A stretch of DNA of 64,000 nt. It comes from Straminergon stramineum (taxonomy: Eukaryota > Streptophyta > Bryopsida > Hypnales > Calliergonaceae). Each line of letters begins with the position of its first letter. Position 1 is the first letter of the stretch. Position numbers and translations under genes: made by a program. This document shows, one piece after another, positions 22,920-52,308 of the stretch. The stretch spans positions 34,894,547 to 34,958,546 of the forward strand of contig OY987263.1 of NCBI GenBank assembly GCA_963920665.1, read 5' to 3'. The notes below the pieces were generated by a model. It had not been told where the DNA came from. It worked only from the letters and a program-made list of their open reading frames with translations, and made no database searches.

Positions 22920-22929
22920 TAGGTTCTAT

Positions 22930-24110: not shown

Positions 24111-24114
24111 AGCT

Positions 24115-31557: not shown

Positions 31558-31565
31558 TGCTAAAC
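31558..31565. repeat. hAT target-site duplication, left
   Basis: TGCTAAAC, identical to 52301-52308. The surrounding bases extend the direct repeat to TGTGCTAAACCA (12 bp) because TG and CA flanks happen to match the element's own ends. Confidence 0.9.
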
Positions 31566-31575
31566 CAGGGTTGAC

Positions 31576-31725
31576 GAAAGTGAGCGTCCTAGGCAAAATC
31601 GCGTCCGAAAATTGGACGTCCGGACGTCTAGACTCTGTAGACACTGTGTCTCCGGTGGGTAAAATATGTCGTTCGCAAATTTACCCTGGGTAAATGCGGT
31701 CGGGCGGACGGGCGGTCGCTAGTTT
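31576..31725. repeat. Left subterminal GC island of the hAT element
   Basis: GC-rich sequence in an AT-rich setting with GGACGTCCGGACGTC, GGTCGGGCGGACGGGCGG and the palindromic TTTACCCTGGGTAA. It mirrors the right end (51985-52290). It is a probable transposase-binding region. Confidence 0.7.
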
Positions 31726-32182
31726 TTTAATATAAAGCTTCAAGTAAACCTTGATTCTTTGAATGCTTTTTACAATAACATATGGAATTATGGACTATCC
31801 TTTGTAGTGTACTCAACCAAAGAGATTGTACACTATAATTGCAATTATGAATTATCAAAAGAAAGGATTAAAAAAAAATTCAACATTCTCTTCCCCTTGA
31901 AAACTACCAAATCTATGATTCTATGACAATCATGAAGTCCAAATTGTTGCATTATATATGTATCCTGCAATGTATCATGCTTCATACAAAGAAAGAGGAA
32001 CACAATCAATTTTGGGGGGACTTCTTCTTGGTTTTGCAATTAAAAAAAAGTAATCATATTTTCAACATCACTAAGGAAACTCCAAGTCTCCAATTGCAAT
32101 GAAAGCTTCAAACAATCAATTGACATTACATGCTCGATGTATCATAAACACCTAAACACCTAAGCCTACATCCCTTGAATCT
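31726..32182 (-). other. 3' flank of the hAT transposase gene
   Basis: AT-rich and non-coding. It would hold the transposase 3' UTR and end (minus strand). The small frame at 31845-32039 has no support. Confidence 0.5.
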
Positions 32183-35100
32183 CTAAGGCTTGTAATCACT
32201 ATCTCTTTTCACCTCAGCCCCACTACTCTCACATTTAGTTCCCCATTGGTCGTCTTCATCGCTAGATGTCTCTTCCATGTCGTTTGATGAAGATTGTACA
32301 ATTTTCACTCCTTCTTGTACTTATGTAGATGTCAATGATCTCATTGATCTACCGGTCTTCTTCTCCATTTTGGCTCTTAACATAGCTTTACCAATGCCTT
32401 CCTTAAGACTAGGGATTGTTTTCATTTTCTTCTTTGAAGAAACTTGATAGGTATCAAGTGGGGTTCTACCCACATTCGGTCTCTTGCTTGGAGAGGTAGC
32501 AAAGGATTGCATTATTCTTTTTTTACGAGCTTTGATGGAGTCTTCACCCTTTGATATCTCTGCTTTTGGCGCTCCTTGAATAATTAATTGCATTGCATTC
32601 AAAGATTGCGATGTTTGGCCTAATGATTTCAAGGAATGGCGTGGTGGATGGCCCCGATGTTGAATAAACATTGAAGCCAATGTCTCATCCTTATCATCAT
32701 CATCGGTACATGATAAAATGGTTTGACTTGGATTGCCTCCAGAACCCATCTCTTTCATAGGAGACAAATGTCTTTTTCCAAGTTGTGATTTCCTTGAACC
32801 ATCCAATGTCGTGGCACCGGTTTAAATAGTGCATGTGGGGGAGCGCTACGTGGTGGTTCGGGAGAATCTTCCATGAGGTGCATTTTGCCAACACCATTGT
32901 TGACAAAAATTGGGCTGCCTGATTCCATCGAACGTCCTTCAACATTGTCTTGTACTTCGTGTGGTTTGGCATTTCCAATATTTGCTTCCCCACATTTCTT
33001 GCTTGCCGATACCACTATTGATGCACCAATTGCATTGCACACGTTCATCTCAACGTTCACCTCACATCCTCCTTTGTCTTCATGTTGGTCATTTTTTTCT
33101 ACCGCCATTATCAGGGATGGAGCATCAGAAATGGGAATCACTTCATCTTTTTCAAGACTCCCATCATTTGCAAACGTTGTCCTATTGGTTGCCCTTATTT
33201 CTACATATGTATCCTCTGTTTGGTAGAAGATTTTTGCTACTCATGAATCCGGTTCCATCCACAAATCTAGCTATTGAAGGTACATCATCATCAAGCCCGC
33301 AATCATCCTCATGTGATCAAAACTCATACATGTCTCCATCCGCGACTCTGAAGTCTTCATTGTTTTGATTAGGAGTCTCAAATATTTCGTTGTCAAAATT
33401 GTGCATATCATAATTCACAGCATCTCTATCATCAGATACAGATTCATCATCTTTGTCTTCTGAGATAGGCCCTTCCGAATCTTTGGACTCCACGTTGTCA
33501 TGGTACCACTTCTTTTCATCCTTCTCCTTCGATGCGGCTATGATTTTGGAATTGGTGTATACATACACCAAATCGGCTGCTCTCTGTGGCCTCAACTTGT
33601 TCCGGGATTTGTTGTGAACAAAAGAGTAGCTACTCCAATTTCGTTCACATGAAGATGATGACACCGGTTGGGCCAAAATCCTCTTTTCAATTGGAGCAAT
33701 GAGCTTGCCACATGCACCCTCAAAATCCCACTAAGCATGTGCCGACAATTTCTGCTCGGCCGGATCCAACATGTCGTGGAATGGAGGATCTTGGTGTCGA
33801 AATGCTAGAAACTCCTTCACTACGTCAGGATAAGTTCCCGGTTGACATATTTTCTTGATAACGCGCTTGCATGCATCTGTTGCATCTTGATCGTTAGCTA
33901 GTTCTTTATCGTGAAGAAGATAAGGGTTTAAAAGAGCTCTTGCATAATGTAGATCAGTCTCTACCATTTCCCGTCGCTTACTAAACGACTTTTCGATATG
34001 AATGGCTAAGTCCAAGGACAAACCAAAGGGCTCTTTTCGTAAAGACAAGACATGCTTCTCTAAATTCCTCATGATATGCAACACCTTGCCCATGCATGGT
34101 ATCTTTGCATCCAAATCACGTAGACCAAACACCACAGGAGCCATCAATTCTCAGAAATTAGTGGCACGGGCCCAAAAATGCTCATCTAAAATTGTCTTCT
34201 TCACCTCTCAAGACTTCGTACGAGATTTTGCATTCTTCATGTCCCGTAACTTGAGGACATATTCTACCCATTGTAGATCCACCACAATTTGTTGCAATCC
34301 AATCTTGACCTTCAACAAATGAGAAATCATGAAGAAATTTGAGGCAAATCTTGTTTTCACCGACATCAATAAGCTATTCTTTGTTTCGTGCTTTTGAAAT
34401 ATAGCTAGCGGCATATGCCGCAATCTGAAGAACTTCACAATGGTTTGGGCCTTTTCCACTAGCTCCTTCAACCATTTTTGCTTCCCCCAATCTTGAAGCA
34501 ATAAATTCAAGGCGTGCACTACACAACCTTGAAAGAAAATGTGCGGATATTTACTCGACACCATATTCCATGCTGCCGGATTTACAAGAGCGTTATCTGC
34601 AGTCACTTGCACAACATTTGTGGGGCCTACTTGTTCTATAAAATTTTCTAAGACAAAGGCCAAAAAAGGAGCATTCTTTTCGATTCCACTTGTATCCACC
34701 GATCCTAAAAATTGCTCACCCGTAGAAGATACAAGCATGGCATTTATCAATGGTCAATTGGTAACTGAGCTCCATCCATCAATAGACAATGTTGCTCCAA
34801 ACTTCCGAATACTATCTTTGGTCCGACTATAAAGCTTTGTCTTGATGTTGGTCTTCGCTTGGTCAAGCAATTTATGGCATAAATCATGATACGATGGTGG
34901 AGCATAGGGCTCACGGTACTCAGCTGTTTTTTTCACTACTTTAAATGTCGAATTTCGAGCTACGACAAATGGTATGTTTGTTGCATAGAAGAAATTGGCC
35001 CACACTGCATTCAAATTGCATTTTGCTACGGAATCAAAGCCATCCACTAGACTACTCTGTCTTTGAGGTCTACTGCTTGATGCCCTTGGAGTGTCATGAT

Positions 35101-35500
35101 CACTGGATGTTTTTGTAGTTCGGTTTACTTCGGATCCTACACCAACAAATTCTTCCGGTGCTGCGCATGAGTCCTCTTGAGTAGAACGCACCATATCCCT
35201 CTCATTTGAAAAATTGCTCCCAACCATACGCATGCTACCAACATCTACATTGTCAATGATCCGTCTCTGCGGTAATGCCCCATTAGATCAAAGAAATAGG
35301 ATTCGAACATCCGGCGTCAATTGTGAACAAAGACTCATTCCCGTATCACGAACACCTGATGGGCCTTCATATCCTAAATGGCTCAACATACGGCTTATCT
35401 TCTTGGCAAACACCAAGTTGCAAGCCTTGCACTTTACCTTACCGATTGATGGGGTACCATACCAACCAGACCAATCCTTGCTCATAGTGGCAAGGCACAA
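32183..35500 (-). pseudogene. hAT transposase (BED finger, DUF659, hAT dimerisation) with long C-terminal extension
   Basis: One frame can be followed from 35500 to 33226 with only stop codons in it: TGA at 35288, 34754, 34208, 34151 and 33317, TAG at 33731 (lowest coordinate of each). In order it shows: a BED-type finger (WYGTPSIGKVKCKACNLVF, then H-L-G-Y); a Ser/Arg-rich linker; DUF659 (ATLSIDGWSSVTN, ADNALVNPAAWNMV, GCVVHALNLLLQDWGK); a middle catalytic-type region; and the C-terminal hAT dimerisation block (AQPVSSSSCERNWSSYSFVH, then RAADLVYVY). Beyond this an acidic then basic extension of about 350 codons continues to 32183, with frameshifts near 33225 and 32806 and a TAA at 32321. The extension holds KKKMK/KKTGR basic patches. 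It would cut and paste the element. A GC island (35790-36050) lies upstream as its probable promoter. Confidence 0.8.
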
Positions 35501-35789
35501 ATTTTAATTCCATATATTGGAATAAAATTCAAAATGTGAAAACCAGATGAACAATGTCCAAATATAATAAAAAATGAGTGCACAAAGCCTTGAAAATCAA
35601 GGCCCTCCCGTCCACTGAACTATACATTACCAAGCAAGGGACACAAAAATTGAAGCTCCTAGCCCTTGGAAATCTTAGCGTTCAGTTTTCAAGAGTGCTC
35701 TCAAATGACTTCTTTCCTATAGTTATAGTCTCTCAAACTGGCCTGACCGTTGGAGACCATTTTTGAATCCACAGAACATACAATCCAAT

Positions 35790-36050
35790 GTCGCTTGATT
35801 CCGCGACGGATGGGCGGACGGAAATTGCAGACAAGTGGACAGGTGGACGGGAGGTTGGGTGGACGGCTGATTTAGGGCGGACGGGAGCTCTGGCGGATGG
35901 CTGGCTTAGTGCGGACGGGCAGACGGGCAATTTAGGTGAACGGGCGGTCGGGTGGACGGCTAATTTAGGGCAGACGGGAGCTCTGGTGGATGGCTGGTTT
36001 AGCGCGGACGGGCGGACGGGCAATTTAGGTGAACGGGCGGTTGGGCGGGG
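35790..36050 (-). promoter_or_regulatory. GC island upstream of the transposase gene
   Basis: CGGACGG/GGACGGGCGG-rich. It contains two tandem 93-bp units (35857-35949 and 35950-36042). It sits about 290 bp upstream of the transposase start at 35500 and about 380 bp from the end of the RING gene. Because 93 is a multiple of three it stays open as a frame, but it is not protein-like. Confidence 0.55.
35857..36042. repeat. Tandem repeat, 93 bp x 2
   Basis: Units start GGGTGGACGGCT and differ at a handful of positions. They are part of the GC island. Confidence 0.85.
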
Positions 36051-36431
36051 TAGATCGTGTCCAATGCTTCAAGAGAGGTGGAAAATAATATGGATTTATG
36101 GATGGAATGAGGAGATTTCAGAAAATTATGGTTTTATCAAAGGGTCTTATAATTTAAAATTTCTAGATTAGCATGAAAATAATACATACTTCACAAAAAG
36201 GTGTTCTTCATAAATCATAATAGCATGAATTTAAAAGAAAGAAAAACAAATGATTCATTCAAAGATATATATATAGATATAGATATAGATATTTAGAACT
36301 TCAAAACAAATCAAAATTCATCATGAATACAATGAATTACTAGTAGTACTCAACCCTTATAACATTCAAGCCACACTCGGTATACTTCTATACTATTAAA
36401 CATAATAAAATAAGGAAAGCCTCTATTATAT
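36051..36431 (-). other. 3' flank of the RING gene
   Basis: AT-rich with an (ATAGAT)n microsatellite at about 36268-36292. No gene. It is probably the RING gene's 3' UTR on the minus strand. Confidence 0.5.
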
Positions 36432-39400
36432 TTAAGAACCACTACTCTCTCCTAAATCATGAGATGGCCCCTCCTTAGCCAAAAGTCTTGCACTCATTCG
36501 TTGAGTATTTGGCCCAGGACTATAGACAACACCTCCTCCGGATCTAACCTCCATGTCAACCGCTAAAAATTGTCGTTTGGTTTCCGGAGAGTGGTCATCA
36601 TCATTGTCATCCTCTCTCTTCCGTTTTGAAGTTCACTTTGGAGACAAATCTACTTCTTCAACCTTCAAGGCCCTCAACGCAGCATCCACTCGATCTACAA
36701 ACACATTGACCTGTTCGTCATCAGCTTCGATGGGTAACCCTATTGGTCGAAAATCGGCCAATAGAAACCCCCTCCATTCAGCTATGATGTCACCTATCCT
36801 CTTGTCAAATGCCCCAGCTACCTCCACAAATGAATGCCCTATAGTTGTTTCCCCATCTATTTCCACAACAGCACGAGCTTTGGCAGCTTCTTCCAACTTT
36901 GACAAGAAAAGGGCCCTACCAATCAAAGTGTGATTATAAGCCCCATATTGCTCATTGAACTCTTGAGCATGCTCCACCTCTACCCAAGTGTTGTTTGGCC
37001 CTTCCTTCACTTCTTTGTCGGGAAAGCGAAAAAACTTATTGTGTTGCACACTCCAATGGCCCCCCATGTTGCGACAAAACAATTCACAAGCCTCGCCATC
37101 TTCAATATCCCTGGCCCGCAACTCCACCTCTCTATTGACAGTCATCCACATGAAAGGATCCACTAGCTCTCCAGACTCCTCATACAATCCATGTCGGCAT
37201 TCAATTGAATCCCATGTGAGAGGTCGCCCCCAATGCAAGAAATTCTGGAACTGGTATGGCCCTTGATCAAGAGGAAGGGTCCATCGGTTGTATTTGTGGC
37301 CGGGGGGCATATCTTCCAAGATCCCAAGCATTTCGTAGAATCGAGGGCTTAGAGGAGAACGACACTCGGCACAAACCTAACAGATGAGTGATGCTTTCAC
37401 GATGCATGTCACGTGAAAAGTGTGGTGACATTGGCCCATGGTTAGGGCTCCTTCAAGGCCAAAAGGACCCTGGCAAAGGCTACAATGACTCTTCAAGATT
37501 CCTGGAGCTGGATCGCAAGCATGCACTACTGTCTTCTCTTTCTCCTTGATGTGCGCTGAAAGCGTGTTGTAAGGGACCCACCCTTCCTCTACTTCCAAGG
37601 CCCAATCGATGTGTGCAACATTGTCCTTCTTTGCGTGGTTCAACCGCTCAAACATGTCATCCATGTCCCCCAACATGTAATTTCGGTGGAACCCCTTAGA
37701 TGTTCATAATACACCTTCTTGAACCGAGCCAAAGAGTTCTCCACGGCATTGCATTCTTCATCCGACTTCATTGCCAATTTCATAAGCCCTTTCATTACTC
37801 GAGATACTACAAAGGGTTTGTCTTGGAGTTTCTATACCCATGCCAACCATCGAGACTCTAATCTGCTCTTTGGCATGCATTCCTCCATGCCCATGATTCT
37901 TTGAAATCGGTCCAACTCCAACTCAATAAGGATTTTCTCTTGAATTGCTTCATCTAATTTCAACTGTAGCTCTTCCACTTCACTACCTTTCGTTTTCGTC
38001 GAAGCATCCTGCAATGTACGAGAAACATTAGGAATGATGGTCCGTAGTGCTTCTTCACATTTCTTGTCATTCCCAACCTCATCCACATTTAAGATGATGG
38101 ACGGCTCCACCACTTTTGCCTTCTCAAAAGAAAGAGAGAGTTGATCACTCTCTTGACTTTCTTGCACAAATGGAATGTTCACGGAGTCCGTGGTAGGCCT
38201 ACCCCTCTTCAACTCTTGTACTTTGAGCTCCAATTCTTCAATGCGCTTTCTTTGAACAACCTTGTTACAACGTTCTTGCTCCATGTTTTTCTACGACATT
38301 TGCAGCTTCATTTCCAATTCCTCACACTTCATCTTCAACCGATGAATGTCTTCTTCTAAGGCCATCAAACTTTTTAAGTTCATCACGCCACCTTCAAGAA
38401 TTGGTGCCACTTTCTCAGTGAAATTGCAAAAAGCCAAGGCACCAGTCAACAATTCAGGTGCCATTTTGGAAAATTCCTCTACCACGTCCCTAACCCAAGA
38501 AGTAATTTCAGCTACCATTTGAGCTGAAGTTCTCAATCTGTATGTGGTTTGCGAAATAGTACCCCAGCCCCCTTTTCCTGTGGGCTGACTAGAGCTGCCT
38601 GCCTCATTTTCGGGATTAGAATGAAGATGTTGTTCTGCTAGTACTCACCAATGACTACAACATTCTAACAACTTTTCCAATTGATTGGTGGTGGGTATGG
38701 AACAAAGAATCTCTAATTGCACCGAGCTTAAAGTTGCCAAATGTGGATGCCCTCCAGTTCTTGCGCTTAATATTTGTCTTGGGCTCAACCTTCGACTCGG
38801 GCTTACGTTTTGATGCGGACTCAACATTCGAATTGGGATCAATATTTGGCTTCGCCTTGGCATTGTTGGCAGCTGAGAAATCGGAGTTGCATATTCCACC
38901 AAGCTCTCAAGAGCTTTACTATCTATGTAACCCTGAATTCTAGCATTGGTCCTTGCAAGTTGTTCCTCATTGACCTCTCCATCTAGCGAAAAAGGTGAAC
39001 CACGTTCTTCTACTAGTGTTTCCTTGTTTGCAACCATGTCTAGACCGCCCAAGGTTGTTTCATTCGTTGTAGTTTCCTTGCTTGGAGCCATGCTTTGTTC
39101 ACCCAATGTTATCACATTCGATGTGGATGTGAAGCATGTTGGAGGAGTTGCAAAAACCTCTCCGTCGACACCTCCCGAGGAGACATTGCTCACTTCTGTG
39201 CAAGGTTGTGCCACTTCTATGAGCCTTAATTGTATTGCATCACCTAAAACCTCGGAGACCTTTGTTGTACGCATTGTAGTATTTTTTAATACTTTTGGGG
39301 TCTTCGTTGGTTCACTTGGTTCTGCCTGAGAATCGTACAGATCGGGAATGTCTTTTTGATTGGGTTGCAGTAAAAGTGGAGAATCCACCTTGGATGGATA

Positions 39401-39823
39401 AGTGCTCCAATCTACCTTGCGGTTTAAAATGAGTTCTGCATACACCATGGATGCCACACTGTAATTTATGCATCCCTTACTCCTTGGCTTGTCCCCAAAT
39501 AGCGTCTGCCACACCTCCTCCGATCAATACACAAAATGCTTATTGTTGCAAGTATGTGGCTTACAACAAAAACCATGTGTATGCACCACATGGCAATCCC
39601 AAGGCCACAACTTGTCAATGTGGTACATTTTAACATACTTCTTGCATGTTTTGAAGGTCCAATATTCCCCTTCCTCCTCCTCCCAACTGCTCTCCGCTTT
39701 GATATTTGGGTCATCTAAAATCTCATAGTGAAGCCCATGAGGGGCCCCCTTCGCTTTAGTCTCCTTCTTTTTTTCACCTCCTGAAGTCTTCCCGTCGTTG
39801 GTAGAAACACCTTGATCCGCCAT
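36432..39823 (-). pseudogene. Transposon cargo gene: Cys/His domain, coiled coil, RING-H2 finger (about 1130 codons)
   Basis: From ATG 39823 a frame runs to TAA 36432 with stops at 39524 (TGA), 38645 (TGA), 38291, 37832 and 37377 (TAG) and 36633 (TGA), and one frameshift near 37690. N-terminal residues 50-140 hold the Cys/His domain shared with the gene at 45838 (TCKKYVKMYHIDKLW, HTCNNKHFV, VYAELILNRKVDW). A Ser/Thr/Pro linker follows, then a helical/coiled-coil stretch (SAQMVAEITSWVRDVVEEF, EELELKVQEL). Next is a C-x2-C-x14-C-x-H-x2-H-x2-C-x9-C-x2-C RING-H2 pattern (37484-37362; QCHHTFHVTC), broken by the TAG at 37377. The C-terminal region of about 300 codons ends with a KRKRE nuclear signal. 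A RING suggests ubiquitin ligase activity. The remainder is unrecognised. Promoter-type GC island at 40010-40390. Confidence 0.65.
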
Positions 39824-40009
39824 GATAGATGATTTGAATTTTTGAGCCCTTCGAAAAATAGTACCACGGCACATGAGTACCATGAGATGTGTGTAAATAA
39901 GTAACAGTGTAAATCAGCAATAGTAACAAAAGCTCAAGGACCCCCACTCTCCACCCTGTAGGAACAACTGACATTTAAAGCAGTAGTAGCACATCCACCC
40001 TAGCGCCGA

Positions 40010-40390
40010 AGGAGAGTAGAAGTGAGAGCAAATGAAGAGGCCGTCCCCCCATATACCCGTCCGCCACCAAACCTAAAAAACGTTCGCCCCGAAGCGGACC
40101 CGGACCTGTCGTCTGCCGTAGCGGACGCCGGGCGACCGCTGGGATTGGTGGACGGGCAGCTGTCCACCCGCTTCGGTGGCAGACGGGCAACTATCTGCCC
40201 GCTTCGGTGGCAGACAGGCAACTGTCCGTCTACTTCGGACCATGACCGGACCTCCCCTCCACCAATCCCAACCGCGGGCCACTCTCGGACCATCCCATCC
40301 GCTCAGGCCGTCCGCCGTCGCCAACCGACCAGACGCAAGACTGTTCACCTCGCTGGGGACCCCACTTGACCTCAGTCCGCCAGCAGTCCT
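40010..40390 (-). promoter_or_regulatory. GC island upstream of the RING gene
   Basis: Dense CCGTCCGCC / CGGACGG / CGGTGGCAGACGGGCAACT words, with a short tandem copy of GCTTCGGTGGCAGAC at about 40170 and 40201. It lies about 190 bp upstream of the gene start. Frames within it are composition artefacts. Confidence 0.55.
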
Positions 40391-43349
40391 AAAGCATTGA
40401 ATTCAGAGAAGGATAGATTCATGTACCAAAAAAACCTCTTCAATACTAGAAGTATCCAATGTAGTATTAATGTAAGAAAAGGTAATTCCAGATATTCCTT
40501 CTCACATTTAAACATGCTCTCCAAACCCTATACCCTAAACCCCAAACCCTAAGTCATGTTGTGCATCAAGTAATGTGCTTGGGTATGTATTATTTTTAAA
40601 AAAGTGAAGTGTTGTTCTTCCACTTTTTAGATTGATTTTGAATTATTTACTAAGAAAGAGGTACTTTCTTTGGTAAATATAGTAACCTAAGTAGCTTAAT
40701 ACTCTTATTAAAGTATTAAATACTTTTGTACTTATCCATAATATAGCTGATACAGGTATGGGTTAATACCCCACCTTCCAGCCTTTCATTTGCACTAATC
40801 CAAGGCTTTAAGCTGGATTAGCAGGACATCAGTTATAATTTAATGTAACTCCAGCCAATAGTAATCAAGAATTAGTGAGCTAGTGGAAACAGGGTTGAAT
40901 TACATTGATGGGGGCCTTCATTTACTACCCTGTACCCCTGTTCGGCTTCATTTGATGGGGCCTAATTGACCAGCTCATGTGGATTTCGGCCAAGCCTTAG
41001 TCCACCTCATGTATCCCTGTGCCAAGTCATCTGATTGGATTAGGGTATAAATTAAGCTCAACTGGTCTTGGGTTGTCACTACTTGTTGGCTCTTGCTTGA
41101 TTTTACTTGAACGAGTTGGAATCTGGTGTCTCTGGGCTCGCAAAGAAGGATGGCAACTTCTCAGGTTCCTCTTATGCATTTGTGATTTTAGAAAGTAGAA
41201 TATATTGTCTTGAGTGTTTGTTTTAAGCCTTTCTGATTATATTTTCATTGTGACAGTGATAACAAATTGCCAAGGGCTGTAGACACCTTGTTTGCGACTA
41301 ACATAACATTTTGTGTGTTGTGTTTTTCATGGGGACAGGTGAGGTCCTTGGCTTCTTTGAAATTATTTCTCAAGGATGGATTTTCCCAAGACAATGAAGA
41401 TATACTACTTGGGGGTGTTTATGTTTAAAGTTTATATTCTTGAACAGTACATGATTTACTATGATGCTTCATTTGCTGTTGGAACATGTAGAAACTGATG
41501 AATAGTAATTTGTCAATTATGTGACAAATAGCTAGTAGTACTTACAACATGTATTGATCCTATCAGGATCTATCCTTATTATACAACATTGGAAAGTTGA
41601 CTAATTATTGAGTGTGGAAGTGTAGCATGCTTGAAATTTGTGGCATTACTGGCTACTACTGTCAAAAACTTGTTGGAAAGATTATGGTTCTCTAAGTTTA
41701 GGTAGGAAATGCCCTGATAAGGGGTGTCCCACCCACCCTCCCGGTTGCAAAAATCAGAATTATACAACCCTCAATTGTACATACTGAATTTATAGCATTG
41801 CATGAATTTTCAACATTATTGATGCGATGTGTGGAATATGTTTTACCTATGAGGCTATGATTCCTTTGTAGTTTGGAATGCAACCATGACAATATAATGT
41901 AGATGTAGACCTTACTTAGTTTGTCAATTGTCATGTACTTGTGTTAGTATGTTACTCATGTAGATTTCAATTTTTCTTAAGATTTAGCACCTAAATTATC
42001 ACTTTATTATGAGCCATTAAATAAATGTGGATCATTCAATTATAACTTGGAGTGTGTCTTCAATTTTTGTTGTTGAATGTATTCATAGTTTAGAACATCA
42101 ATATGAATATACTAAAAGAAATTATATTATCTCATTATTCTATTATAACATTTATTGAATGTATAGGATGGTGCTAAAATGATTCAAGCATTTTAATGTA
42201 ATGTGAAATGTTGTGAACAAGATTAAAGTAAGCAGTTATACAACAAAATGAATTGAAAATTCATATCATACACACTTTGACACTTATACCTATGTATACT
42301 TGTGTGCATCCTAAATTGTAAACCAATCATAAATTTATCACAACCCAAAAATATTAGAGCTTAGGTAATGTACAATGTGATTGACCTTCAAATATGATGA
42401 GTCTTCAATTACAAGAAATTAGAAATGGTCATACTTCAATGATTACAAGTGTGTTTCATCTCAAAACTTTTTTGCGAATAATAATATAGAGAGGTTCATA
42501 ATATCATATCTTTTAAATTATAAATTTACATTATTGATTAAATTGCTTATATAGTTATGTAGGCCTAGGATTTTGTAAAATCTTGAACCCCTAAAGCCTT
42601 CATGCTTTTTTTCCCATCAAATATCACTCAAAACTGCCATTTCGAATGCAAAGAGACAAAAATCTTAAAAATTGATTTTTGGGCATATTTAACCATAGGA
42701 ATTTATACTAGACTAGTATAAAAGTTAATTGAGTTATCTTGTCATCTTGAAAACTTTGAGTACATACATTGCATGGTATTTGCATTTAAAGTAAGCCCCC
42801 AATTTTTTTTCTTCCATCTTGCCATACTAGATTATTGGGCTTCTCATTTTCTTCACTTTAGATTTTTGGCACTAGTGAATTTCATTTTAGAATATCTTGT
42901 ATTGAAAAATTTAACTCTTAAGTGAAGACTAAAGAATCTTGAACCAAAAATTTAGAAATAAATCATTTAATTGAGATCATATATCATAAGAGTCCCGTAT
43001 AAGAATGTAGGGCCTTTGGGACTTTAGGGATTAATTATTTTCCTTGAAAGGCATGAAAAAGAATAATAAATTGAACCCTAAAGGCTTTTGTTACAATCTT
43101 AACATCGAATTTCTTTTGCTATTAGTCAAAAAGTATTGTTGACATCACAAACTTATACAAAAGCACCAATGTAAAACAAAATTTCTTTCCACACTAATTT
43201 GAATTCTTTATTTACAAATCAAATGATTTTCCAAACAAGAGACTTTGGGATGTCACTTTTGATAGTTGTATCAATTTAAGACCTCATGACATAACATATT
43301 AAAAATAATTTCTCTACTTTTCTTAATTCACCATGTAATGCAATCTCTA
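40391..43349. other. Central gene-poor region of the hAT element
   Basis: About 3 kb without a supported gene between the leftward and rightward gene pairs. It includes telomere-like CCCTATACCCTAAACCCC at about 40527, a promoter-like segment (separate entry) and worn TTTAGGG/CCCTAAA words near 42590, 43020 and 43075 that may be old TTAA-family ends. Confidence 0.5.
41043..41340 (+). other. Promoter-like and exon-like fragment, possibly captured
   Basis: A TATA-like GGTATAAATTA (41044-41054) is followed about 95 bp later by an ATG (41150) with a short exon ending CTCAG before GTTCCT. Further on, a block bounded by GTGACAG and GGACAG/GTGAGG (41262-41338) is open in one frame (DNKLPRAVDTLFATNI). 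Phases of the two pieces do not join cleanly. It could be the 5' end of a captured host gene. No family is recognised. Confidence 0.25.
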
Positions 43350-43562
43350 CCTGTTGCCCCGTCCGTCCATCCATCTCCACAAAGTTCAAAACACCTCTCC
43401 TGACAGTCCGCCCAACCACCAATTCAGAAATTGAAAAATACCTCTCTCCCGCAATCCCGCCCACCTCTCCCCTCCCATGCTCCTCTCCGTCTACCCGACC
43501 GCCGGTCCGCCCAACCACCAATTCAGAAATTGAAAAACTCCTCCCTCCCGCAGTCCCGCTGT
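43350..43562. repeat. Central GC island with a 99-bp direct repeat
   Basis: GTCCGCCCAACCACCAATTC occurs at 43406 and 43505 followed by the same AGAAATTGAAAAA. It also contains CCACCTCTCCCCTCCCATGC, shared exactly (29 bp in all) with the island at 44940. No gene starts immediately beside it. Confidence 0.65.
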
Positions 43563-44939
43563 CGTATTGTAAATGTGTTCATTATGTGAAAATGCATAAT
43601 TGTTTGTTAAATTGGAGGGTTTTTTTTTGTAGAGTTTCAAGAAACAAATGGGGTTATACTCCACTTGAACTCTTTTTTTTTACCTCTATTTGACAAACAC
43701 TTAGTTCTTTGATTTCTATACTAGAGATATTTTAATATGTTAGTTAGTTAAGTTGAAGTTGTAAAAACAAAAGGTAAAGCTTGTTTTACCTTTTTCCTTA
43801 TTTTTATTTTTATTTTAATGGATTAGAAATCCACATAGATGATATGGATAGACTTATCGAGAAGAGGAAGTGGCCCATGTGGGTATTATGGCCCATGTGG
43901 CCTCTTAGTGGCCAAAATCCACTAACTTGAGTGGTTGGCATGGAGGTTGAGTTGGCGGATGAGGTTGAGGATTATCTTCTTCCTCCTCCTTGTTTGCTTA
44001 AGGAAGCCGTCACTTTGGGGGGGAATAGCACTTTGTACATGGAGAATTTGGTAATGAGATTTTGAGAGCTTGTGTATCTTGTTTTTGTGTTTCCGAAAAG
44101 CTATCACTCATGAAGTTTGGAGTTGGTATGTGTAAGTTATGATTTTGGGAGTGAGGTGTTGTGAAGCTGCCTCAAACTTTCAAGAGAGTGAGCTTTGAAA
44201 GGGTATGAAATGTGAACAGTATTTTTTATTTGAGTGAAACTTGGGAAGCTTGTAGATATTCATGTTAGCTTTCCAAAATGGGTTTATTTTCTTGATTTGG
44301 AGGTAGTATGAGAAAGTTATGGGCTTGAAAGTGAAAGGGTGAAGGAATACTTTCGGGTTTTCAAGTGAGTGAGTTTTGAAAGGGTTTGAAATGTGGACAG
44401 TACTTTGTATTTGAGTGAAAATTGAGGAGCTTGTAGATGTTCATGTTAACTTTCCAAAATGGGTTTATTTTCTTGATTTGGAGGTAGTATGAAAAAGTTA
44501 TGGTCTTGAGAGTGAAGTATAGGTGAGCTGCCTTTGAGTTGGGAAGGGTGAACTTTGACCGACCATAAAAGTCGGACAGTATCTTAGTTTTGAGTGAATT
44601 TTGAGAGGTTGTAGAAATTTTTATTAGCTTTCTAGAGGCATATCACACTCTTAGTTTGGAGTTGTATAGCGAACGTGGCACTCAATAAACTATCAGACAC
44701 TTCTTCGAGGGGAGTTCATGAAGGATATGACTTTGTTTCCACAATTTTTTACCATGCATGGGGTATATTGAGACTCCATGACATCTTTGGAGGGGTGTAT
44801 GGAAGGGTGATAGTATTTTGGTTCATATGGCATCATTGGGGGAATTTATTGTTATGTTTGTGACTTTGGCCACAGGATCTTTCATTATTTGAACCACATC
44901 TAGTTGCAGCTAGAAGCCCCGCGTTTTCCCAAGGCAAGG
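43563..44939. other. Gene-free interval with tandem repeats
   Basis: AT-rich with no supported gene. It holds the 181-bp tandem array (separate entry) and a CT-rich patch (CTTCTTCCTCCTCC, about 43976). Confidence 0.5.
44100..44670. repeat. Tandem repeat, about 181-bp unit, three diverged copies
   Basis: TTTCCAAAATGGGTTTATTT recurs at 44270 and 44451, with matching GAGCTTTGAAAGGGTATGAA / GAGTTTTGAAAGGGTTTGAA before it. A third, more diverged copy follows to about 44660. Confidence 0.75.
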
Positions 44940-45435
44940 CCTCTCTACTCGACACCACCCACCTCTCCCCTCCCATGCTCCTCTCCGTGAGCCCATCCGC
45001 CCATCCGCCCGTCCGCCGTAAACCAAACCCCAACTCCCAAACTCAAAAACGCCTCCCTCCCTCCTGCCCATCCACCCGACCGCCCAACCACCCGTCCGCT
45101 GTAAAGGAAACACGAATTCCCAAAGTCAAAAACGCCTCCCTCCTTCCTTCGGTCCCACACTCCCTCCCACGCTCCTCTCCGTCCGCCCGTCCGCAGTCCC
45201 CGTCTGCACCTCAGTAGTCCCCATCCGCATTGTCCGTCCGCCTATCCGGAATCTGTCCGCATTTCCCGTCTGCGTCCGCGCTGCTCCGTCCGCTACTTGT
45301 CGGTGACCGTGTGATCCAGCGGACAGCGATTTTAGACCGCCCGATCTGCCCATTCGCCTACATGCTGTCCGATGCGGACGGCAGCGTTCGCATACCCTAA
45401 AGCGCCGACCGCATAAATGCCGGCGCGGTCGGCTC
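44940..45435 (+). promoter_or_regulatory. GC island upstream of the Cys/His gene
   Basis: CCGTCCGCC-rich with repeated AAAACGCCTCCCTCC blocks (about 45046 and 45130), then GTCCGC-spaced words to 45320. It lies about 400 bp upstream of ATG 45838. It shares a 29-bp exact block with the central island. Confidence 0.55.
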
Positions 45436-45837
45436 ATTTCTTCACAATCATTTCCCTTCCGGAGTGGGTGATCCAGTGCCTTTGAGAATCTGCGCGCCCC
45501 TTCTGGCTTGGTGCATGAACGATTGTGTTCGTATTAACTTTTTTTTATCACATATTGGTTTGAGTGATTAGGGGGTTGCCCCAACTTATAAGTCTTTAAT
45601 TTTACAAAGTTCATTTGAGTGTTCTTAATTACTTGAATTGTGTTTGAGTTGATTGGGTTGTCAGAAACTCAAGGTGTTCAAGTTTACGGTTGATTTGGTT
45701 GTCAATAACAATAGGTGCAATTTGTTTTAATCCAAATTCTTACTTTTCATTTGGTACATTTAGCCAAAGCAGGCGGAAATTGCATTTAAACTTTGTAATC
45801 CTTTTGGTTCATTATTAATTGAGGTCTGGAGGTTATC

Positions 45838-46935
45838 ATGTCGCGCGCAAGTGGTGGAGGAAGTAAGAAGGGGAAATCACAAGAGATCAATTGGAAAGAT
45901 TTGGGAGACGTAACCTGCGTTGCGGAGAAGGGATGGAAAAAGGAGCCCAAGAAAGAATGGGATTGCACAACATGCAAGAAGTACGTCAAAATGACGCACC
46001 TCTCCAAACTATGGTCACGTGATCGCGCAGAGGTGCAAGTTCATCGTTGGGAAGGACAAATGTCCACATGTAAGAGCGAACACTTTGTTCGCTGCTACGA
46101 GGAGATAACATCTGCATCAAGTTTACCAAGCTCCAAGCCAAACGTCATGAACTATTCGAACATGGCTATGATTTGGGCGGAGATAGTACTCCATAAAGAA
46201 ATAGATTGGCACACGGTTGTAGGGTGCAATGTCAAGAATTTAACTCGTGGGGAAGCCATAATTCCTACTAACTGGGTTGGACCAAGCGATTGCATGCCAG
46301 AGTGGTCCAATCAAGGCTATGGAGAACTTCCTTCGGTCGTCTTGAAGGATGCTGAAGATGATTGGTCAGATGAAGATGAAGATGATGATGATCCAGCACC
46401 CGTGACATTTGGTGAGAGACACGAACGTCGAGAAGATTGGGAAGACATTGAGTACCAACAACAAATGCAGGAGGCCATGCGCCGAAGCGTGGAAGACCGG
46501 GGTCAGCAACATGATGGGTCCTACTACCATGACTATAATGCATGTGGATCACGAGATGGGACAGGTGGTTCAGATTATGGTAACGCCCCCCAAGTTGGCT
46601 CTCAAAGTATAGGAGGAAGCCATAGACCGACATACTATGGTCAGTATGGTGGTTCTAGCAAAGGAGGCTCTCAATACTACTCTGGATCGACTACACATGG
46701 TTCATATGGGCATCAGGGAGGCCCTTATTATGGCGGATCAAGTGAAAGAAGGTCTTGGGAGAGTGCTCCAATTCCTCCTCCAACCTTTGGAGGTCCTTCT
46801 TATGGAAATGAATATGGACAAGGAGGTGCATCAAGTGGATATGGTTACAACTATGGGGGTGGACCATATATTGGGGTACATCCTTTAGGCCCAAATGACA
46901 ACAAGGATTCCAATTCCGATTCAGATTTAGAGTGA
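45838..46935 (+). CDS. Transposon cargo protein: Cys/His domain, UIM-like helix, Gly/Tyr-rich tail (365 residues, intact)
   Basis: An uninterrupted frame from ATG to TGA. Residues 40-125 form the domain shared with the RING gene: conserved C46-x7-H54-x14-H69-x8-C78-x3-H82, the string CKKYVKM-x-H, KLW, EHFV and (M/V)-x-(W/Y)-AE-I-V-L-x-K-x-(I/V)-DW. The Cys/His spacing suggests metal binding, and nucleic-acid binding is a guess. An acidic run (172-188) is followed by DIEYQQQMQEAMRRSVED (203-220), which fits the ubiquitin-interacting motif pattern (hydrophobic-x-x-Ala-x3-Ser-x2-acidic). Residues 225-345 are Gly/Tyr/Ser/Gln-rich, a prion-like low-complexity tail. The end is acidic (DSNSDSDLE). 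It is the only gene of the element without a premature stop. The function is unknown. Confidence 0.65.
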   Translation: MSRASGGGSKKGKSQEINWKDLGDVTCVAEKGWKKEPKKEWDCTTCKKYVKMTHLSKLWSRDRAEVQVHRWEGQMSTCKSEHFVRCYEEITSASSLPSSKPNVMNYSNMAMIWAEIVLHKEIDWHTVVGCNVKNLTRGEAIIPTNWVGPSDCMPEWSNQGYGELPSVVLKDAEDDWSDEDEDDDDPAPVTFGERHERREDWEDIEYQQQMQEAMRRSVEDRGQQHDGSYYHDYNACGSRDGTGGSDYGNAPQVGSQSIGGSHRPTYYGQYGGSSKGGSQYYSGSTTHGSYGHQGGPYYGGSSERRSWESAPIPPPTFGGPSYGNEYGQGGASSGYGYNYGGGPYIGVHPLGPNDNKDSNSDSDLE

Positions 46936-47989
46936 AGGAGTTAAGTAGAGTATGGTATTCTAGTCATCTTATGTTTGTTTTCGTGTATGGTTCACTCATT
47001 GTAATGTACATAGATGGTAGAGTGCGGCAAATATAGCACAATGCTCTCGACGAGTTGTAATCACCTTTTTTGTGATTTTGATAGAAATACATTGTATTTT
47101 TATATTTTAATAAAGCGATATTTATGTCACGTAATTTATAGGATTTAATACCATTGATGCATGACTATGGGCTAATGGGTATTTGTGAAAATGAAAAATG
47201 TATTGGACCACTTTCTACAATATTTTCATTCCAATCATTCAATGTGAATAGGTGAATTGCAAATGCAAAGGATGTCCCAAATATACAATAGAGGTTTGTA
47301 GAATAGCGAGAACCACCATTTTAGTTCCATTTGCTATTAAAAATTGAATTGTAAACCCTAGAAGTCCAAAGGCTTTTTTCCATCCAAGACCATTTAGTGA
47401 TTTAGAATTGCCATTTCAATTACAAAGAACTAGAAAATGTAGGAACAATGTTCTTGGCATGTCGGATTGTACGATTTTGTACTATAGCAATTTATGAACG
47501 TGTAGAAGCAATTTCAAAAACTTAACGCACATAGATTGTAAGATATTTGCATTCAAGGTGACTGAAACAAATTATTTTGATGTTTGCTTGACTAGATTTT
47601 TGGCTTCTAATTATTGAAACAATAAATATTTCCACTTGTGAGTGTGATTTTATAATTTTGTATGTTGAAGACTTGAAGAATTTAGATGAGAGCATGAGAA
47701 CATAGGAAGAAAAATTCCACCAAAAGATGTTTAGTTTTTATTCATAAGATAATTGATAAGTTGAGTATATTCAAGATCAAAACTAGAACATTATTAATTT
47801 TAAGATAAAATGATGTAAACATGAGAATCTCAATAGTGAGAGTATTTCAACAAGCAAACCTCACCAGCTATCCCTCTATAAATTTTTTTCATTTCCATGA
47901 TAAATGATTTACTTGATTCTTACTTTCGTTTGAAACTGAAATGTTGAATATGATACATATATTTGGCTTAGAGATGTTCAAGAGAAATG
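46936..47989 (+). other. 3' flank of the Cys/His gene; gene-free
   Basis: AATAAA at 47109-47114 could be the polyadenylation signal of the gene ending at 46935. Further right it is AT-rich, with a block (47345-47410) resembling 42585-42650 (CCCTA-AAG-CTTTTTTCC then CATCAA). Confidence 0.5.
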
Positions 47990-48430
47990 AAAATCTCTGA
48001 TCGTAGGGACGGTCTGCCATCCGTTCGATTGGACGAGCTGGCAGCGTCCGCGACAAGCTGGCCGTCAGATCTGGCGGACACTGATCGCCCGATTGTCCTG
48101 CTGATCGGCCGGCCGGCCCGAGGCGGACGAATGACCGTCCACAAAATCGGATGGCCAAGACAAGGCGGACGGCCATCTCGAGGCGGTCGAAATGCGCCCA
48201 AACCATCGGACGACTGCGACAAGGCGGACGGAATGCCGTTCGCATGATCGAACGGCTGTGACGGGGCAGACAGAAGGCCGTTTGCACAATCAGATGGCCA
48301 CGAGGAGGCGATCGAGGAAGAGGCGGACGGAAGGCCGTCCGCATGATCGGACGGCCAAGAGGAGGCGGATGGGGACGAGCCGTCTGTCCCGTATAAGAGG
48401 GGCGGACGACCTGTCCACAATCACTTTTGC
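47990..48430 (+). promoter_or_regulatory. GC island upstream of the kinase-like gene
   Basis: Repeated GGCGGACGGAA / GATCGGACGGCCA / GAGGCGGACGG words. It lies about 170 bp upstream of ATG 48601. Long open frames on both strands here are caused by GC composition and repetition. Confidence 0.55.
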
Positions 48431-48600
48431 CTTGCCCCTTGCGTTTCGCAAGTGTGGAGTGGAGAGCTTGGTGGTTCGTCTTCCATTGGTTCCTCTCCTC
48501 GGGAAGGCGGACGTCTTATTTTGGGGCCCCATTATTGCCATTTTTTGTAGCGAACTTCTAAGTTTTAGTTACAAATTTCGGGTATTAAAAATTTATCACG

Positions 48601-50082
48601 ATGCTAAGATCGAAGAAGGTGACGAAGGGAAAACAAGTGGTACAAGAGGTGGCAAGTAAGAAAATTCCATCCGATGCATGCAAAGCATTCATGACCGAAT
48701 GCATTGCAAAATTCTATGAATCGGAAACCACTGTGTCTCTTGACACAAAATATGTATGATATGGAGAGGAGTGTCCATCCAAATTCAAGGCAGACATGAC
48801 GCATAGAATGTTGAATGCCTTATATGTTCCGCAATGGCAACATGAGACGGAGAAGAGGGGTTTCAACAAATGTTTGGAAAATATGGTGCATGATGCATTG
48901 TGGAACGCTAATGTGGTTCTCGCAAAATACGACAAACAACACCGTGCAAATGATGAAGCCTTTGAGCAAGTCATTCTCAAAGCTCAATTGTTTATTGGGC
49001 GTTGCGCCCCATATGCAAAGAGGCGTAATAGACGAGGGTCATTGGGTTGGTGGACTAGCGCTGAGGGTCTTACTGAATTGGATATGGGTAGACGTCATCT
49101 TATAGCGCTTCCGAACACCGCACAGGTGATTCCCTAAGATGGCTTAATCATGAGGAGAGGATATGCAACAATTCGAAGGGTGAGAATTGAAGGATGTCCA
49201 GGGATAGCTCCATCTTGGGAGTTCGCAACAAAGATATCCAACCACCACAGTACGCAGCCTCAGCTTGCAAAGTTGGAACATCAAAATGAATCAATGGTAG
49301 TGAGGATTCCACATTCAGGAGTCATACAGTTTGTTGCACTTCATGCAAGAACAAATGAAGGGTACTCGTATTGGTGGAATGGTGGAACACTTCGGCAAAT
49401 GTTGAACCTGGATAACGATTATCCAGACAACATATATGTTCGGTTACAGTATTCGAACCCAACAGAGTCAAATGTGACTAAAGCTTTTCATCTCGCTCGG
49501 TTTCGGAAGAAGCGCACCGAGCTTGCTTGGGCATTGGTGCATATCATGAATGCAGTACATGTGTCTGGACATCTACACAATGATATTTCTCCAGACAATA
49601 TCATGTTTCATTTTCCTGATGATGAATCATGTGTCTACATTGGCATTTGCGATTGGGGCATGACTACTGTAGCTACCGAACCAATGAAATCCTTGTATAT
49701 GTTCACATCTGCAAGTGAAATGAACGAAGCTTTAACAAGGAGGTGGTGGATGGATCGAAGCATTGCATATTTGCATAGAAGAGATGCAAATGTAGAAATC
49801 ATTCCACATTTATCACGTGCATGGGAGGAATATGCAATTAGTAAAATAGCTCAAAGGATCAATAAACAATGCATGTTAGAAAACTACAGCAGATTGCAAC
49901 GGGAAACTAATGCAATGGCCATATTTAGCCACCACCAATTGGGAATTGTGTTTCACCAATACTTGGACCGGCTTTGTCAAAGAGGTGATGGTTATCAGGG
50001 TGGTTTGGCCCACATCATCAATCAGTTCACTAGCCAATTCAATTGGCCTATGTCGGATGAACACTTTCGACATTCATATTAG
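48601..50082 (+). pseudogene. Transposon cargo gene: protein-kinase-like, two in-frame stops
   Basis: One frame of 494 codons from ATG 48601 to the stop at 50080-50082, interrupted only by TGA at 48757 and TAA at 49135. The N-terminal part (to about residue 178) is unrecognised, basic, with WWTSAEGLTELDMG near its end. The C-terminal part resembles a protein kinase: Gly-loop-like GYATIRRVRIEG (about 187), FATK with a candidate ATP-binding Lys (about 211), hinge-like GGTLRQML, catalytic loop HLHNDISPDNI (Asp about 328; HRD is HND here, Asn kept), and a metal-binding D-W-G (about 351) in place of DFG. The downstream helices are divergent. A kinase is not expected in a hAT element. Its substrate is unknown, and the stops leave it probably non-functional unless the kinase part starts at ATG 49150. 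Confidence 0.6.
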
Positions 50083-50527
50083 TAATATAGTGCAAGAGTG
50101 TACTATATAGAGTTTTATAAATATTTGATAAATGTAGAACTTTGGATTTATGCATGTAGATTGCTTAGTATATATGCACCCCTAGAGTATGTCAATATAT
50201 GTGAAATTAGACATACATTTTGAATTTTTCAATGTATTTGAATTGTTTTTGAATGAATATCAGTTTTTGACAAATCAAGAATATCTCTTGTTTGAGTGCA
50301 AAGTGAAATATTTCTTCTTGAATGTAGATGGCTATTTAGTTGACAAGCTTGTATGACAAATTGCATGATGTATGATGTGTGGGTGCAAAAGTTTCTAAGC
50401 CCGTTCAATTTCATTTGGAATAAGTCTTGGAAGAAGACCATTTCATTTATGATATGGAATTACTTGGACCTTCTTAGAAGTTGTGTTCCATCAATTTCAT
50501 TGATATTTGAATTATCATGCCGACCCG
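50083..50527. other. 3' flank of the kinase-like gene
   Basis: AT-rich and non-coding up to the nested TTAA-ended element. Confidence 0.5.
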
Positions 50528-51172
50528 TTAACCCCTAAATGCCCAAGGCACCAAATTTTGGTGTTTCGAAAACTTTGAAGTTAAGTAAAACCCAACCAAA
50601 TTGCTATTATTAGTAGTTTGTATTTTTGGAGAATTCTTTTTGAAGTCTAGTTTTAGGATCAAAAAGCCGATCTGAAAAATAAAGGATTATGATTTTTCTA
50701 TAGAAGATTTAGTGCAAGGATGCCCATTGCAATCTTGACTTCCCATAGTGTTGAGGGCTCTTGAAAATGAGCCTCAAATACACTAGATCTTGAAGGCAAA
50801 ATCACATTAGAAATTCATTTTAAAAAATTGTAGAATAGATTTTGGAAAATCGTAAATTGATTGGGGTTGTGCATGCTGGGCCTTATAACCTCATATTTTT
50901 TTAGTGACCAACTTTTTAGAGTTGACATGCAATAAGTGAATTGAAAAATTTTCACAATTTTTACACCCTCATGATCAAACATTATAATCTTTCAATCTAT
51001 AAGTGATACTGTTATGTTTTCTTTTCCTATGTGATCTCTAACATGTCTAGTTTGAATTTGTATGGTTACAATTCAAAAGAAATTGGTACAACTTATGAAA
51101 ATGTTGACTTTTTGTTCAATTTAGATCAAATTTCAAGGAGCTCCAAACACGCCTTGGGCATTTAGGGGTTAA
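50528..51172. mobile_element. TTAA-ended inverted-repeat element, 645 bp (copy 2, nested in hAT)
   Basis: Same length as copy 1 at 6872-7516 and aligned with it in inverted orientation. Ends TTAACCCCTAAATGCCC at both limits. It inserted into the hAT element, so it is younger than that insertion or its progenitor. Confidence 0.8.
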
Positions 51173-51984
51173 AGCAATTGTGGTTTTGTTGTTTTAGTGT
51201 GTATACTTATAATGAATCAACTATGAAGAGACGTAATTAGTAAATTCATCACAAATTTACAATGAAGGATTTTAAAGTAATTTATATAAATGATTTGTTT
51301 GAAAAAGGAAGTTGTATCTTATTCACATGAAATCTTTGGAAGCAAACATGAAGCATGTGACCGTATGTCCGTATTTTTGTAGGCATGTAATTTTGAGATT
51401 AAATTGTTATATGTTGTTTTTTTAAGAGAATTTTCTAGTAGCAAATGATTTTATCAATTCAAACAAAATTCTAACGTGATTCATGAAGTGAAATCGAAAA
51501 ACAAAGAGAGTGATTCAATTTTAGTGTTTTTTCAAAAAGGTCAAGGACTTTAGTACTTTTACAGTACTTGGATTTTTAAAAGCCTTTGGGTTTCCAATTT
51601 AGACCCTCAATTTTTTTTTCATTGCATTGTTTTCATAAAATGAACAAAGGAAAATAGGAAATTAAGCTCTAAATGAATGGGTTACAAACTGTATGTATGT
51701 CCAATATTTTCCTAAACCCGAACCCATAATTAATTTGTTATTTTGAGTACTGGTTCTTTGTATATTTATTAAAAAAATCCTTTGAAATTCTATTGCAGCA
51801 CTTGAAAATGAATTATGAAAATAAATGACTTTTCTCTTTACAAATTTGTAAAGTGCAATGTTCTTTTTGTTCATTGCTAAGGACTCTTAGAAATGAGCAT
51901 GAATTGTACCAAATTTCAAAAATAAAATCGCATTCGAAATTCTCTTAGAATAAAAAAATAAAGATAGAGACTAAATTCGGGGAG
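51173..51984. other. Gene-free right interior of the hAT element
   Basis: AT-rich, with no frame of interest. Leads into the right GC-rich terminus. Confidence 0.5.
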
Positions 51985-52290
51985 TCTTAAGCGGTCGGAC
52001 GGGTTGGCGGACGGTCGGACGGGATGGCGAATGGGCTGCATAAATCACGGACGGGGTCGCGGACGGGTGGACGGGATGGCGAACGGGCTGCAGAAACCGC
52101 AGACGGGATGGCGGACAGGCTATAGAAATCGCGGACAAGGCTGCAAACAGGATGGCGGATGAGCTGCAGAAACTGCGGACGGGGTCGCGGACGGGAAATT
52201 ACCCTAGGGTAAAACTGAAATTTTCCGAATGTCACAGGACGTTCAGGGGGGTCGCGGATGAGGACGCTAGCGGCTGCGTCAAGACGCCCT
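51985..52290. repeat. Right subterminal GC island of the hAT element
   Basis: Direct repeats of GCGGACGGGATGGCGAA-CGGGCTGCAGAAA-CGC-like units (spacing about 30-50 bp) over 250 bp. Then TTACCCTAGGGTAAAA, the counterpart of the left-end palindrome, and the terminal GTCAACCCTG. Confidence 0.75.
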
Positions 52291-52300
52291 GTCAACCCTG

Positions 52301-52308
52301 TGCTAAAC
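52301..52308. repeat. hAT target-site duplication, right
   Basis: TGCTAAAC, the perfect partner of 31558-31565, 20.7 kb away. Confidence 0.9.

What the first reader, a model, noticed from the sequence alone, without database searches (positions are those of the whole stretch)
31566..52300. A 20.7-kb hAT transposon carrying four genes
Seen: exact 10-bp inverted ends CAGGGTTGAC, an exact 8-bp flanking duplication TGCTAAAC, matching subterminal palindromes, and a BED/DUF659/hAT-C transposase inside. Known: hAT superfamily elements make 8-bp duplications and usually measure a few kb with one main gene. Inferred: one insertion brought a transposase plus three extra genes as a unit. I know of no described plant hAT with this gene set.
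Basis: partly seen in the sequence, partly recalled or inferred. Interest (0 to 1): 0.95.

Follow-up and report, generated by a model that had tools for sequence, protein, structure and literature searches.

The report
Giant four-gene plant hAT transposon family
This is one of many copies of an unusually large plant jumping gene that carries its own transposase plus three further genes, including a kinase, and puts the same short DNA motif in front of all four genes and near its ends, which suggests a self-regulating element rather than a chance pick-up of host genes.

Summary
In detail: 10-bp inverted ends and an exact 8-bp duplication bound a 20,735-bp unit. The interpretation also holds. 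In the host's own genome (326 Mb) the left end recurs: 40 places among 40 scored of 290 candidates. Six other copies were read; all six carry the same four genes in the same order and strands (hAT transposase A, B with a RING-like part, C, kinase D), 18.2-24.9 kb long in the five whose right end was reached. Of six copies with both ends seen, window included, five have their own exact 8-bp duplication. B and C share a Cys/His-rich, perhaps zinc-binding domain. New: GGACGG clusters precede all four genes, at least two motifs in 27 of 28 upstream regions in seven copies, against 0.12-0.22 per 900 bp elsewhere inside. The window copy is decayed: A, B and D have premature stops. An empty site was not tested; genome-wide counts of A, C, D and the right end were not obtained. 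The helper role of B, C and D is inferred.

The parts
31558..31565 (.). 8-bp target site duplication TGCTAAAC, left
31566..31575 (+). left terminal inverted repeat CAGGGTTGAC
   Evidence: similar ends at 40 scored genome places
31566..31730 (+). left subterminal GC-rich region (CpG o/e 1.51 over 31566-31720)
32186..35485 (-). gene A, hAT transposase (DUF659, Dimer_Tnp_hAT, D-D-E, about 350-aa C-terminal tail); this copy has premature stops at 35290, 34756, 34210, 34153, 33733 and frame changes in the tail
35600..36050 (.). GGACGG cluster upstream of A
36635..39823 (-). gene B: N-terminal domain shared with C, coiled-coil-like middle (by eye), RING-like part, C-terminal part without Pfam match; stops at 39526, 38647, 38293, 37834, 37379 and a frame change near 37.8 kb
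39792..40402 (.). GGACGG cluster upstream of B
43280..43560 (.). weaker GC-rich repeat block in the B-C spacer
44860..45540 (.). GGACGG cluster upstream of C
45838..46935 (+). gene C, 365 aa, open; conserved Cys/His-rich N-terminal domain and variable G/S/Y-rich tail
47890..48515 (.). GGACGG cluster upstream of D
48601..50082 (+). gene D, protein kinase (491 aa in relative P0024); stops at 48757 and 49135 in this copy
51990..52300 (+). right subterminal GACGGG repeats
52291..52300 (-). right terminal inverted repeat
52301..52308 (.). 8-bp target site duplication TGCTAAAC, right

Best explanation
The 20.7-kb stretch is one decayed copy of a multicopy family of giant hAT transposons that moved as a unit carrying four own genes: transposase A, B (shared Cys/His-rich domain plus RING-like part), C (the same domain plus a variable tail) and kinase D. 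Shown: ends, duplications, gene order and strands in several copies, homologous genes in other assemblies, and GGACGG clusters upstream of each gene and near the ends. Inferred: A cuts and pastes the unit. Inferred and less sure (about 0.4): B and/or C binds the GGACGG clusters and keeps the element expressed or un-silenced, much as VANC does for VANDAL elements, with B acting through a RING-type ubiquitin ligase activity and D by phosphorylating element or host proteins.
For: Exact ends and duplication, 0 of 154,250 by chance. A(-) B(-) C(+) D(+) in 6 of 6 other copies read. Exact own duplications in 5 of 6 copies with both ends seen, window included. Left end at 40 scored places; B at 20 of 40 of them in the window's geometry, 15 within 4.4-5.3 kb; A's 3' part in place at 21 of 30 (all three counts include the window). 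Shared contig lengths elsewhere: A+C 17,649 and A+D 27,639; two or more coincidences in 1 of 20,000 simulated draws. Relatives: C 22, D 72, A 46. D-D-E residues invariant in 15 of 15 A sequences; in 25 D relatives the kinase K, E, N and DWG are invariant and the HxD Asp is present in 24. GGACGG counts upstream of 28 genes.
Against: No empty site tested. Genome-wide counts of A, C, D and the right end were not obtained (tool busy). Most long contigs in the protein tables show only one of the genes: of 13 A, 1 C and 10 D contigs of 10 kb or more, only two lengths are shared. dN/dS among the seven copies gives no sign of selection on C and D (0.77 and 0.64, higher than in the shifted frames), only a weak one for A and B. 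By the same count all seven copies have in-frame stops in at least two of the four genes. 20 of 40 left ends have no listed B and 9 of 30 lack A in place; B scoring was cut at 150 of 506 candidates. L010 has no matching duplication and the right end of L003 was not found. The mechanism for B, C and D rests on domains and motif placement only.
Confidence: 0.92

Rival explanations
1. A hAT that captured host genes by chance (Pack-type or transduplication).
For: Plant hATs are known to capture gene fragments (PMC8903248, passages seen).
Against: Same four genes and order in 6 of 6 copies; B is repetitive, 150 listed places; relatives of C and D share contig lengths with A in other assemblies; Pack-type elements are described as non-autonomous, without a functional transposase, whereas a transposase gene, though broken here, sits in each copy read.
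Confidence: 0.04
2. A composite: a small hAT with later nested insertions of other elements carrying B, C or D.
For: Spacer lengths vary between copies (18.2 to 24.9 kb, longer in L003; L009 has insertions inside B and C), a nested 637-bp element lies at 50532-51168, some left ends lack A or B, and two 14-15-bp inverted pairs of the GC-rich repeat bracket B with only 2-3-bp direct matches (35942-45085 and 36006-45192).
Against: No internal exact inverted pair of 11 bp or more with a duplication of 5 bp or more brackets a gene; the gene order is fixed across copies at different target sites; the same GGACGG clusters precede all four genes and mark the ends.
Confidence: 0.03
3. The unit is real, but B, C and D are cargo that serves the host, as proposed for Starship cargo, not the element.
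For: The kinase family is large and also annotated in Ceratodon purpureus.
Against: All seven copies have in-frame stops in at least two genes, as expected for selfish genes kept only in active lineages; the genes carry the element's own motif clusters. Neither point is decisive.
Confidence: 0.1
4. The GGACGG clusters are only CpG-rich low-complexity repeats shared by descent, without a regulatory role.
For: The copies are fairly close (left ends 81-88% identical), so conservation is partly shared ancestry; the permutation test on the window was made after seeing the pattern (379 of 200,000).
Against: Density is 1-15 motifs per upstream region against 0.12-0.22 per 900 bp elsewhere inside; clusters keep CpG o/e of 0.9-1.2 while the B-C spacer has 0.15.
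Confidence: 0.3

Closest known systems
Plant hAT elements (Ac, Tam3 and others; survey of 276 sequences, PMC6027215, passages seen)
   Same: 8-bp duplication, TIR matching the survey's pattern [T/C]AGNGNNG, hAT transposase
   Different: The longest plant consensus in that survey is 7,144 bp and it found no Physcomitrella hAT; here 18-25 kb with three further genes
ToxhAT of wheat-infecting fungi (PMC6737239, passages seen)
   Same: hAT-like transposase with several extra genes in about 14 kb
   Different: 74-bp TIRs, other genes named in the paper, contains a nested transposon, fungal; not compared here by sequence
Enlarged CACTA elements of Chondrus crispus, 16-20 kb with 4-5 ORFs (cited in PMC6431247, passage seen)
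   Same: cut-and-paste element enlarged with own extra ORFs
   Different: CACTA superfamily, red alga
VANDAL/VANC elements of Arabidopsis (PMC5735166, passages seen)
   Same: own accessory genes; short motif in dense tandem repeats, some upstream of a gene; accessory protein with conserved and variable parts
   Different: Mutator-like (recalled); motif YAGTATTAY, repeats also in introns; no sequence test of B or C against VANC was made
Starship elements (search listing and passage only)
   Same: giant eukaryotic transposons with extra genes
   Different: tyrosine recombinase, fungal, 27 to several hundred kb

Membership tests
hAT superfamily | 8-bp target site duplication | tested here: met
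   exact in window, L006, L009, L027, L030; not in L010; L003 right end not found
hAT superfamily | short TIR of 8 bp or more, pattern [T/C]AGNGNNG | tested here: met
   CAGGGTTGAC fits; the same or close variants (one to three substitutions) start all 30 left-end loci
hAT superfamily | transposase with hAT C-terminal dimerisation region and DUF659 | tested here: met
   15 of 15 sequences match both at E <= 0.1
hAT superfamily | D-D-E catalytic residues | tested here: met
   D236, D297, E614 invariant in 15 of 15; their assignment as the triad is recalled, by motif
hAT superfamily | BED-type zinc finger | tested here: inconclusive
   no Pfam BED hit at E <= 0.1 in 15; C-x2-C (14 of 14 with letters) and H, C (15 of 15) conserved
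hAT superfamily | excision and reinsertion | not testable with these tools
   needs empty sites or an assay
Pack-type (captured host gene fragments, no functional transposase of its own) | no transposase gene | tested here: not met
   a transposase gene, though interrupted in most, lies in every copy read
protein kinase (gene D) | kinase fold and catalytic residues | tested here: met
   Pfam 18 of 18, residues, model of relative P0024 and its PDB matches; the window piece itself scores below Pfam's cut-off
RING finger (gene B) | Pfam RING model above cut-off | tested here: inconclusive
   best E 1.9e-5, below curated cut-off; the stop at 37379 splits it
VANC anti-silencing proteins (genes B, C) | sequence homology to VANC | not tested
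   no comparison made
Starship | tyrosine recombinase, no hAT transposase | tested here: not met
   the element encodes a hAT transposase; no recombinase hit in the 18 ORF pieces scanned

The most novel reading that the evidence does not exclude
A hAT lineage has become a small self-governing genome: a transposase, a kinase, a RING-type ligase and a motif-binding anti-silencing protein (B and C, a domain family of possibly new fold), all four genes driven from promoters built of the same GGACGG repeats that mark its ends, so that one self-encoded factor couples expression, anti-silencing and transposition. It is probably spread through mosses, with at least 150 B copies in this genome alone.
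Probability: 0.35. Interest if true: 0.9.

Novelty: new variant of a known kind. Interest (0 to 1): 0.82.

Why it matters
DNA transposons of the hAT type are thought of as a few kilobases with one gene. A multicopy family of 18-25 kb with the same four genes shows that hAT transposition can carry and spread such loads repeatedly, and that these elements can have their own accessory proteins. The common motif in ends and promoters makes a concrete test of transposon anti-silencing outside the VANDAL elements possible, probably in mosses, where a 2018 survey found no hAT in Physcomitrella (PMC6027215, passages). It also ties a kinase family and a Cys/His-rich domain family, members of which stand in databases as hypothetical proteins, to a transposon.

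Tried and rejected
Host-gene capture, nested composite and chance ends were considered and rejected as above. Searches without result: relatives of C in plasmids, in genome contigs (for kinase D) and in viral contigs (for D, for A); Rfam and tRNA scans of the window; fold matches of C in PDB and in viral models, where the whole C model of mean pLDDT 59 was given, a weak test; PDB sequences at E <= 0.001 for C, at E <= 0.01 for A and at E <= 1 for the B C-terminal piece; inverted-end boundaries of the CpG-poor spacer. Selection tests among copies did not support constraint on C or D. In the listings of nine paper searches (open-licence PubMed Central only, titles and starts of abstracts seen) I recognised no such element; a 2026 review of gene capture in plants has no 'hAT' in its main text. 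So absence from print is not shown.

Method limits: linkage in other assemblies rests on equal contig lengths read from tables (46 A, 21 of 22 C and 71 of 72 D rows had a length), not on seen contigs. The six copies were picked for a B hit near the left end. The 9 of 30 left-end loci without A in place were not followed further. Two B matches of 152 were not printed and are not in the count of 150. For one search a few gene starts were extrapolated from partial matches. The host is called a moss by inference (nearest named kinase relatives are Ceratodon purpureus).
Full report
Observation. The window holds CAGGGTTGAC at 31566 and its reverse complement ending at 52300, flanked by TGCTAAAC on both sides. 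Of 156 possible CAGGG/CCCTG pairs only this one has both an exact 10-bp inverted end and an exact 8-bp duplication, and none of 154,250 pairs did in 200 simulated sequences. CGGACGG occurs 28 times inside the unit and never in the 43.3 kb outside.

Genes. A is a hAT transposase: DUF659 and Dimer_Tnp_hAT, D-D-E residues invariant in 15 of 15 sequences. Alignment to relatives extends it from 35485 to 32186, including a tail of about 350 residues. B spans 39823-36635 and joins an N-terminal domain, a long middle part and a RING-like part below Pfam cut-off. C (45838-46935) is open, and its N-terminal domain is related to that of B (four relatives of C match B at 38-42% identity). In that domain C43, C46, H54, C78 and H82 are the same in 20 of 20 sequences with letters there and C152 in 22 of 22; zinc binding is inferred from this. 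In the C model ten-residue blocks have mean pLDDT of 77-94 over residues 11-130, the whole model 59; no PDB match reached E 0.001 (best 4.3). The only recurrent Pfam hint is zf-C3HC, in 8 of 22 members at E <= 0.1 (best 0.0054). D is a kinase: Pkinase in 18 of 18 members at E <= 0.01; in 25 relatives K, E, N and DWG are invariant and the HxD Asp is present in 24; the model of relative P0024 matches kinase structures (best E 4e-8). In this copy A, B and D have premature stops, so it does not look autonomous.

Relatives elsewhere. C has 22, D 72 and A 46 relatives in the protein collection. D relatives include Ceratodon purpureus proteins, one a cluster of 126 member sequences. A relative of A and one of C both lie on a contig of 17,649 bases, and a relative of A and one of D on a contig of 27,639 bases; two or more such coincidences came up in 1 of 20,000 simulated draws. 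Against this, of 13 A, 1 C and 10 D contigs of 10 kb or more these are the only shared lengths.

Copies in the host genome. The genome is 326 Mb in 59 contigs. The left end gave 41 matches, 40 of them separate places (40 of 290 candidates scored), and the B C-terminal piece 152 matches (150 listed; 150 of 506 candidates scored). B lies inward on the opposite strand, as in the window, at 20 of 40 left ends, 15 of them within 4.4-5.3 kb; shifted controls gave 0 five times and the same-strand control 2. A's 3' part is in place at 21 of 30 left-end loci. Both counts include the window's own copy. Six copies were read over about 30 kb each: all six have A(-) B(-) C(+) D(+) (with D of L003 completed); in L009 B and C are split by inserted DNA. 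Left-to-right lengths are 18.15, 18.19, 19.07, 19.24 and 24.90 kb; the right end of L003 was not found within 37.7 kb. Own exact duplications are seen in L006, L009 and L027 and, by eye in the printed ends, in L030, whose right TIR has one changed base. L010 has none. All 30 left-end loci start with the TIR or a close variant, after 29 different 8-mers; L016 and L027 share theirs and are probably one insertion duplicated with its surroundings.

Motif clusters. In seven copies, window included, 27 of 28 regions of 900 bp upstream of A, B, C and D hold two or more GGACGG/CCGTCC (range 1-15; the exception is A in L006), against 0.12-0.22 per 900 bp elsewhere inside. In the window the four clusters have CpG o/e of 0.9-1.2, the ends 1.3-1.5, the flanks 0.44-0.55 and the B-C spacer 0.15. 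A permutation of four clusters in the window gave 379 of 200,000, a test made after seeing the pattern. Shared ancestry of the copies explains part of the conservation.

Selection. Among the seven copies the median dN/dS was 0.46 for A, 0.34 and 0.43 for two parts of B, 0.77 for C and 0.64 for D; shifted frames gave 0.50-0.74 for A, 0.55-0.79 for B, 0.53-0.58 for C and 0.47 for D. So A and B look weakly constrained and C and D do not, as expected if most differences arose after insertion. All seven copies have in-frame stops in at least two of the four genes. Long-term constraint on C and D is inferred only from their open, alignable relatives in other assemblies.

Mechanism. Shown: units with the same ends and genes, five of them with their own duplications at different places. 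Inferred: A acts on the ends. Proposed: a B/C domain protein binds the GGACGG arrays at the ends and in front of the four genes, coupling expression and relief from silencing, with the RING-like part of B and kinase D acting on silencing or repair factors. The nearest precedent is VANC, which binds a short motif found in tandem repeats of VANDAL21 and induces loss of methylation (PMC5735166, abstract and passages seen). No homology to VANC was tested.

Comparison and novelty. A 2018 survey of 276 plant hAT sequences gives 7,144 bp as the longest consensus and reports no Physcomitrella hAT (PMC6027215, passages). ToxhAT (about 14 kb, fungi; PMC6737239, passages) and 16-20 kb CACTA elements of a red alga (PMC6431247, passage) are the closest large relatives in kind. 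The family is a hAT by the defining features tested, except the unconfirmed BED finger, and a new variant by size, gene set and motif clusters.

Noticed in passing
window 50532-51168: A 637-bp insertion inside the element with perfect 18-bp inverted ends CCCCTAAATGCCCAAGGC and TTAA on both sides, a piggyBac-like signature (recalled).
   Followed up: no
host genome contig C11: 44 of 150 listed B copies lie on C11, which is 5.4% of the genome; it could be a sex chromosome or a heterochromatic one.
   Followed up: no
window 40403-43275: B-C spacer is strongly CpG-poor (o/e 0.15) next to CpG-rich clusters; no inverted-end boundary of a nested element was found.
   Followed up: partly
L016 and L027 (C11:14277349 and C11:14195290); B pairs on C2, C3, C7 and C11: Copies with the same flanking 8-mer or identical B scores in opposite orientation, suggesting inverted segmental duplications.
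   Followed up: no
L005, L007, L015, L017, L018, L021, L024, L028, L029: Left ends without A in place, possibly shorter non-autonomous derivatives; L019 is broken by an inverted right-end-like stretch.
   Followed up: no
window 22023-26725: Copia-type gag and reverse transcriptase pieces.
   Followed up: no
window 44178-44516: A 181-bp tandem duplication in the B-C spacer.
   Followed up: no
protein P0026: A kinase D relative filed under a Bacilli metagenome assembly, probably plant DNA misassigned.
   Followed up: no
window 57132-62915 (-) and 9194-10168 (-): Pieces of a methionyl-tRNA synthetase-like gene (tRNA_bind hits; the synthetase hit is below cut-off) and a G-patch gene lie in the flanks.
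   Followed up: no
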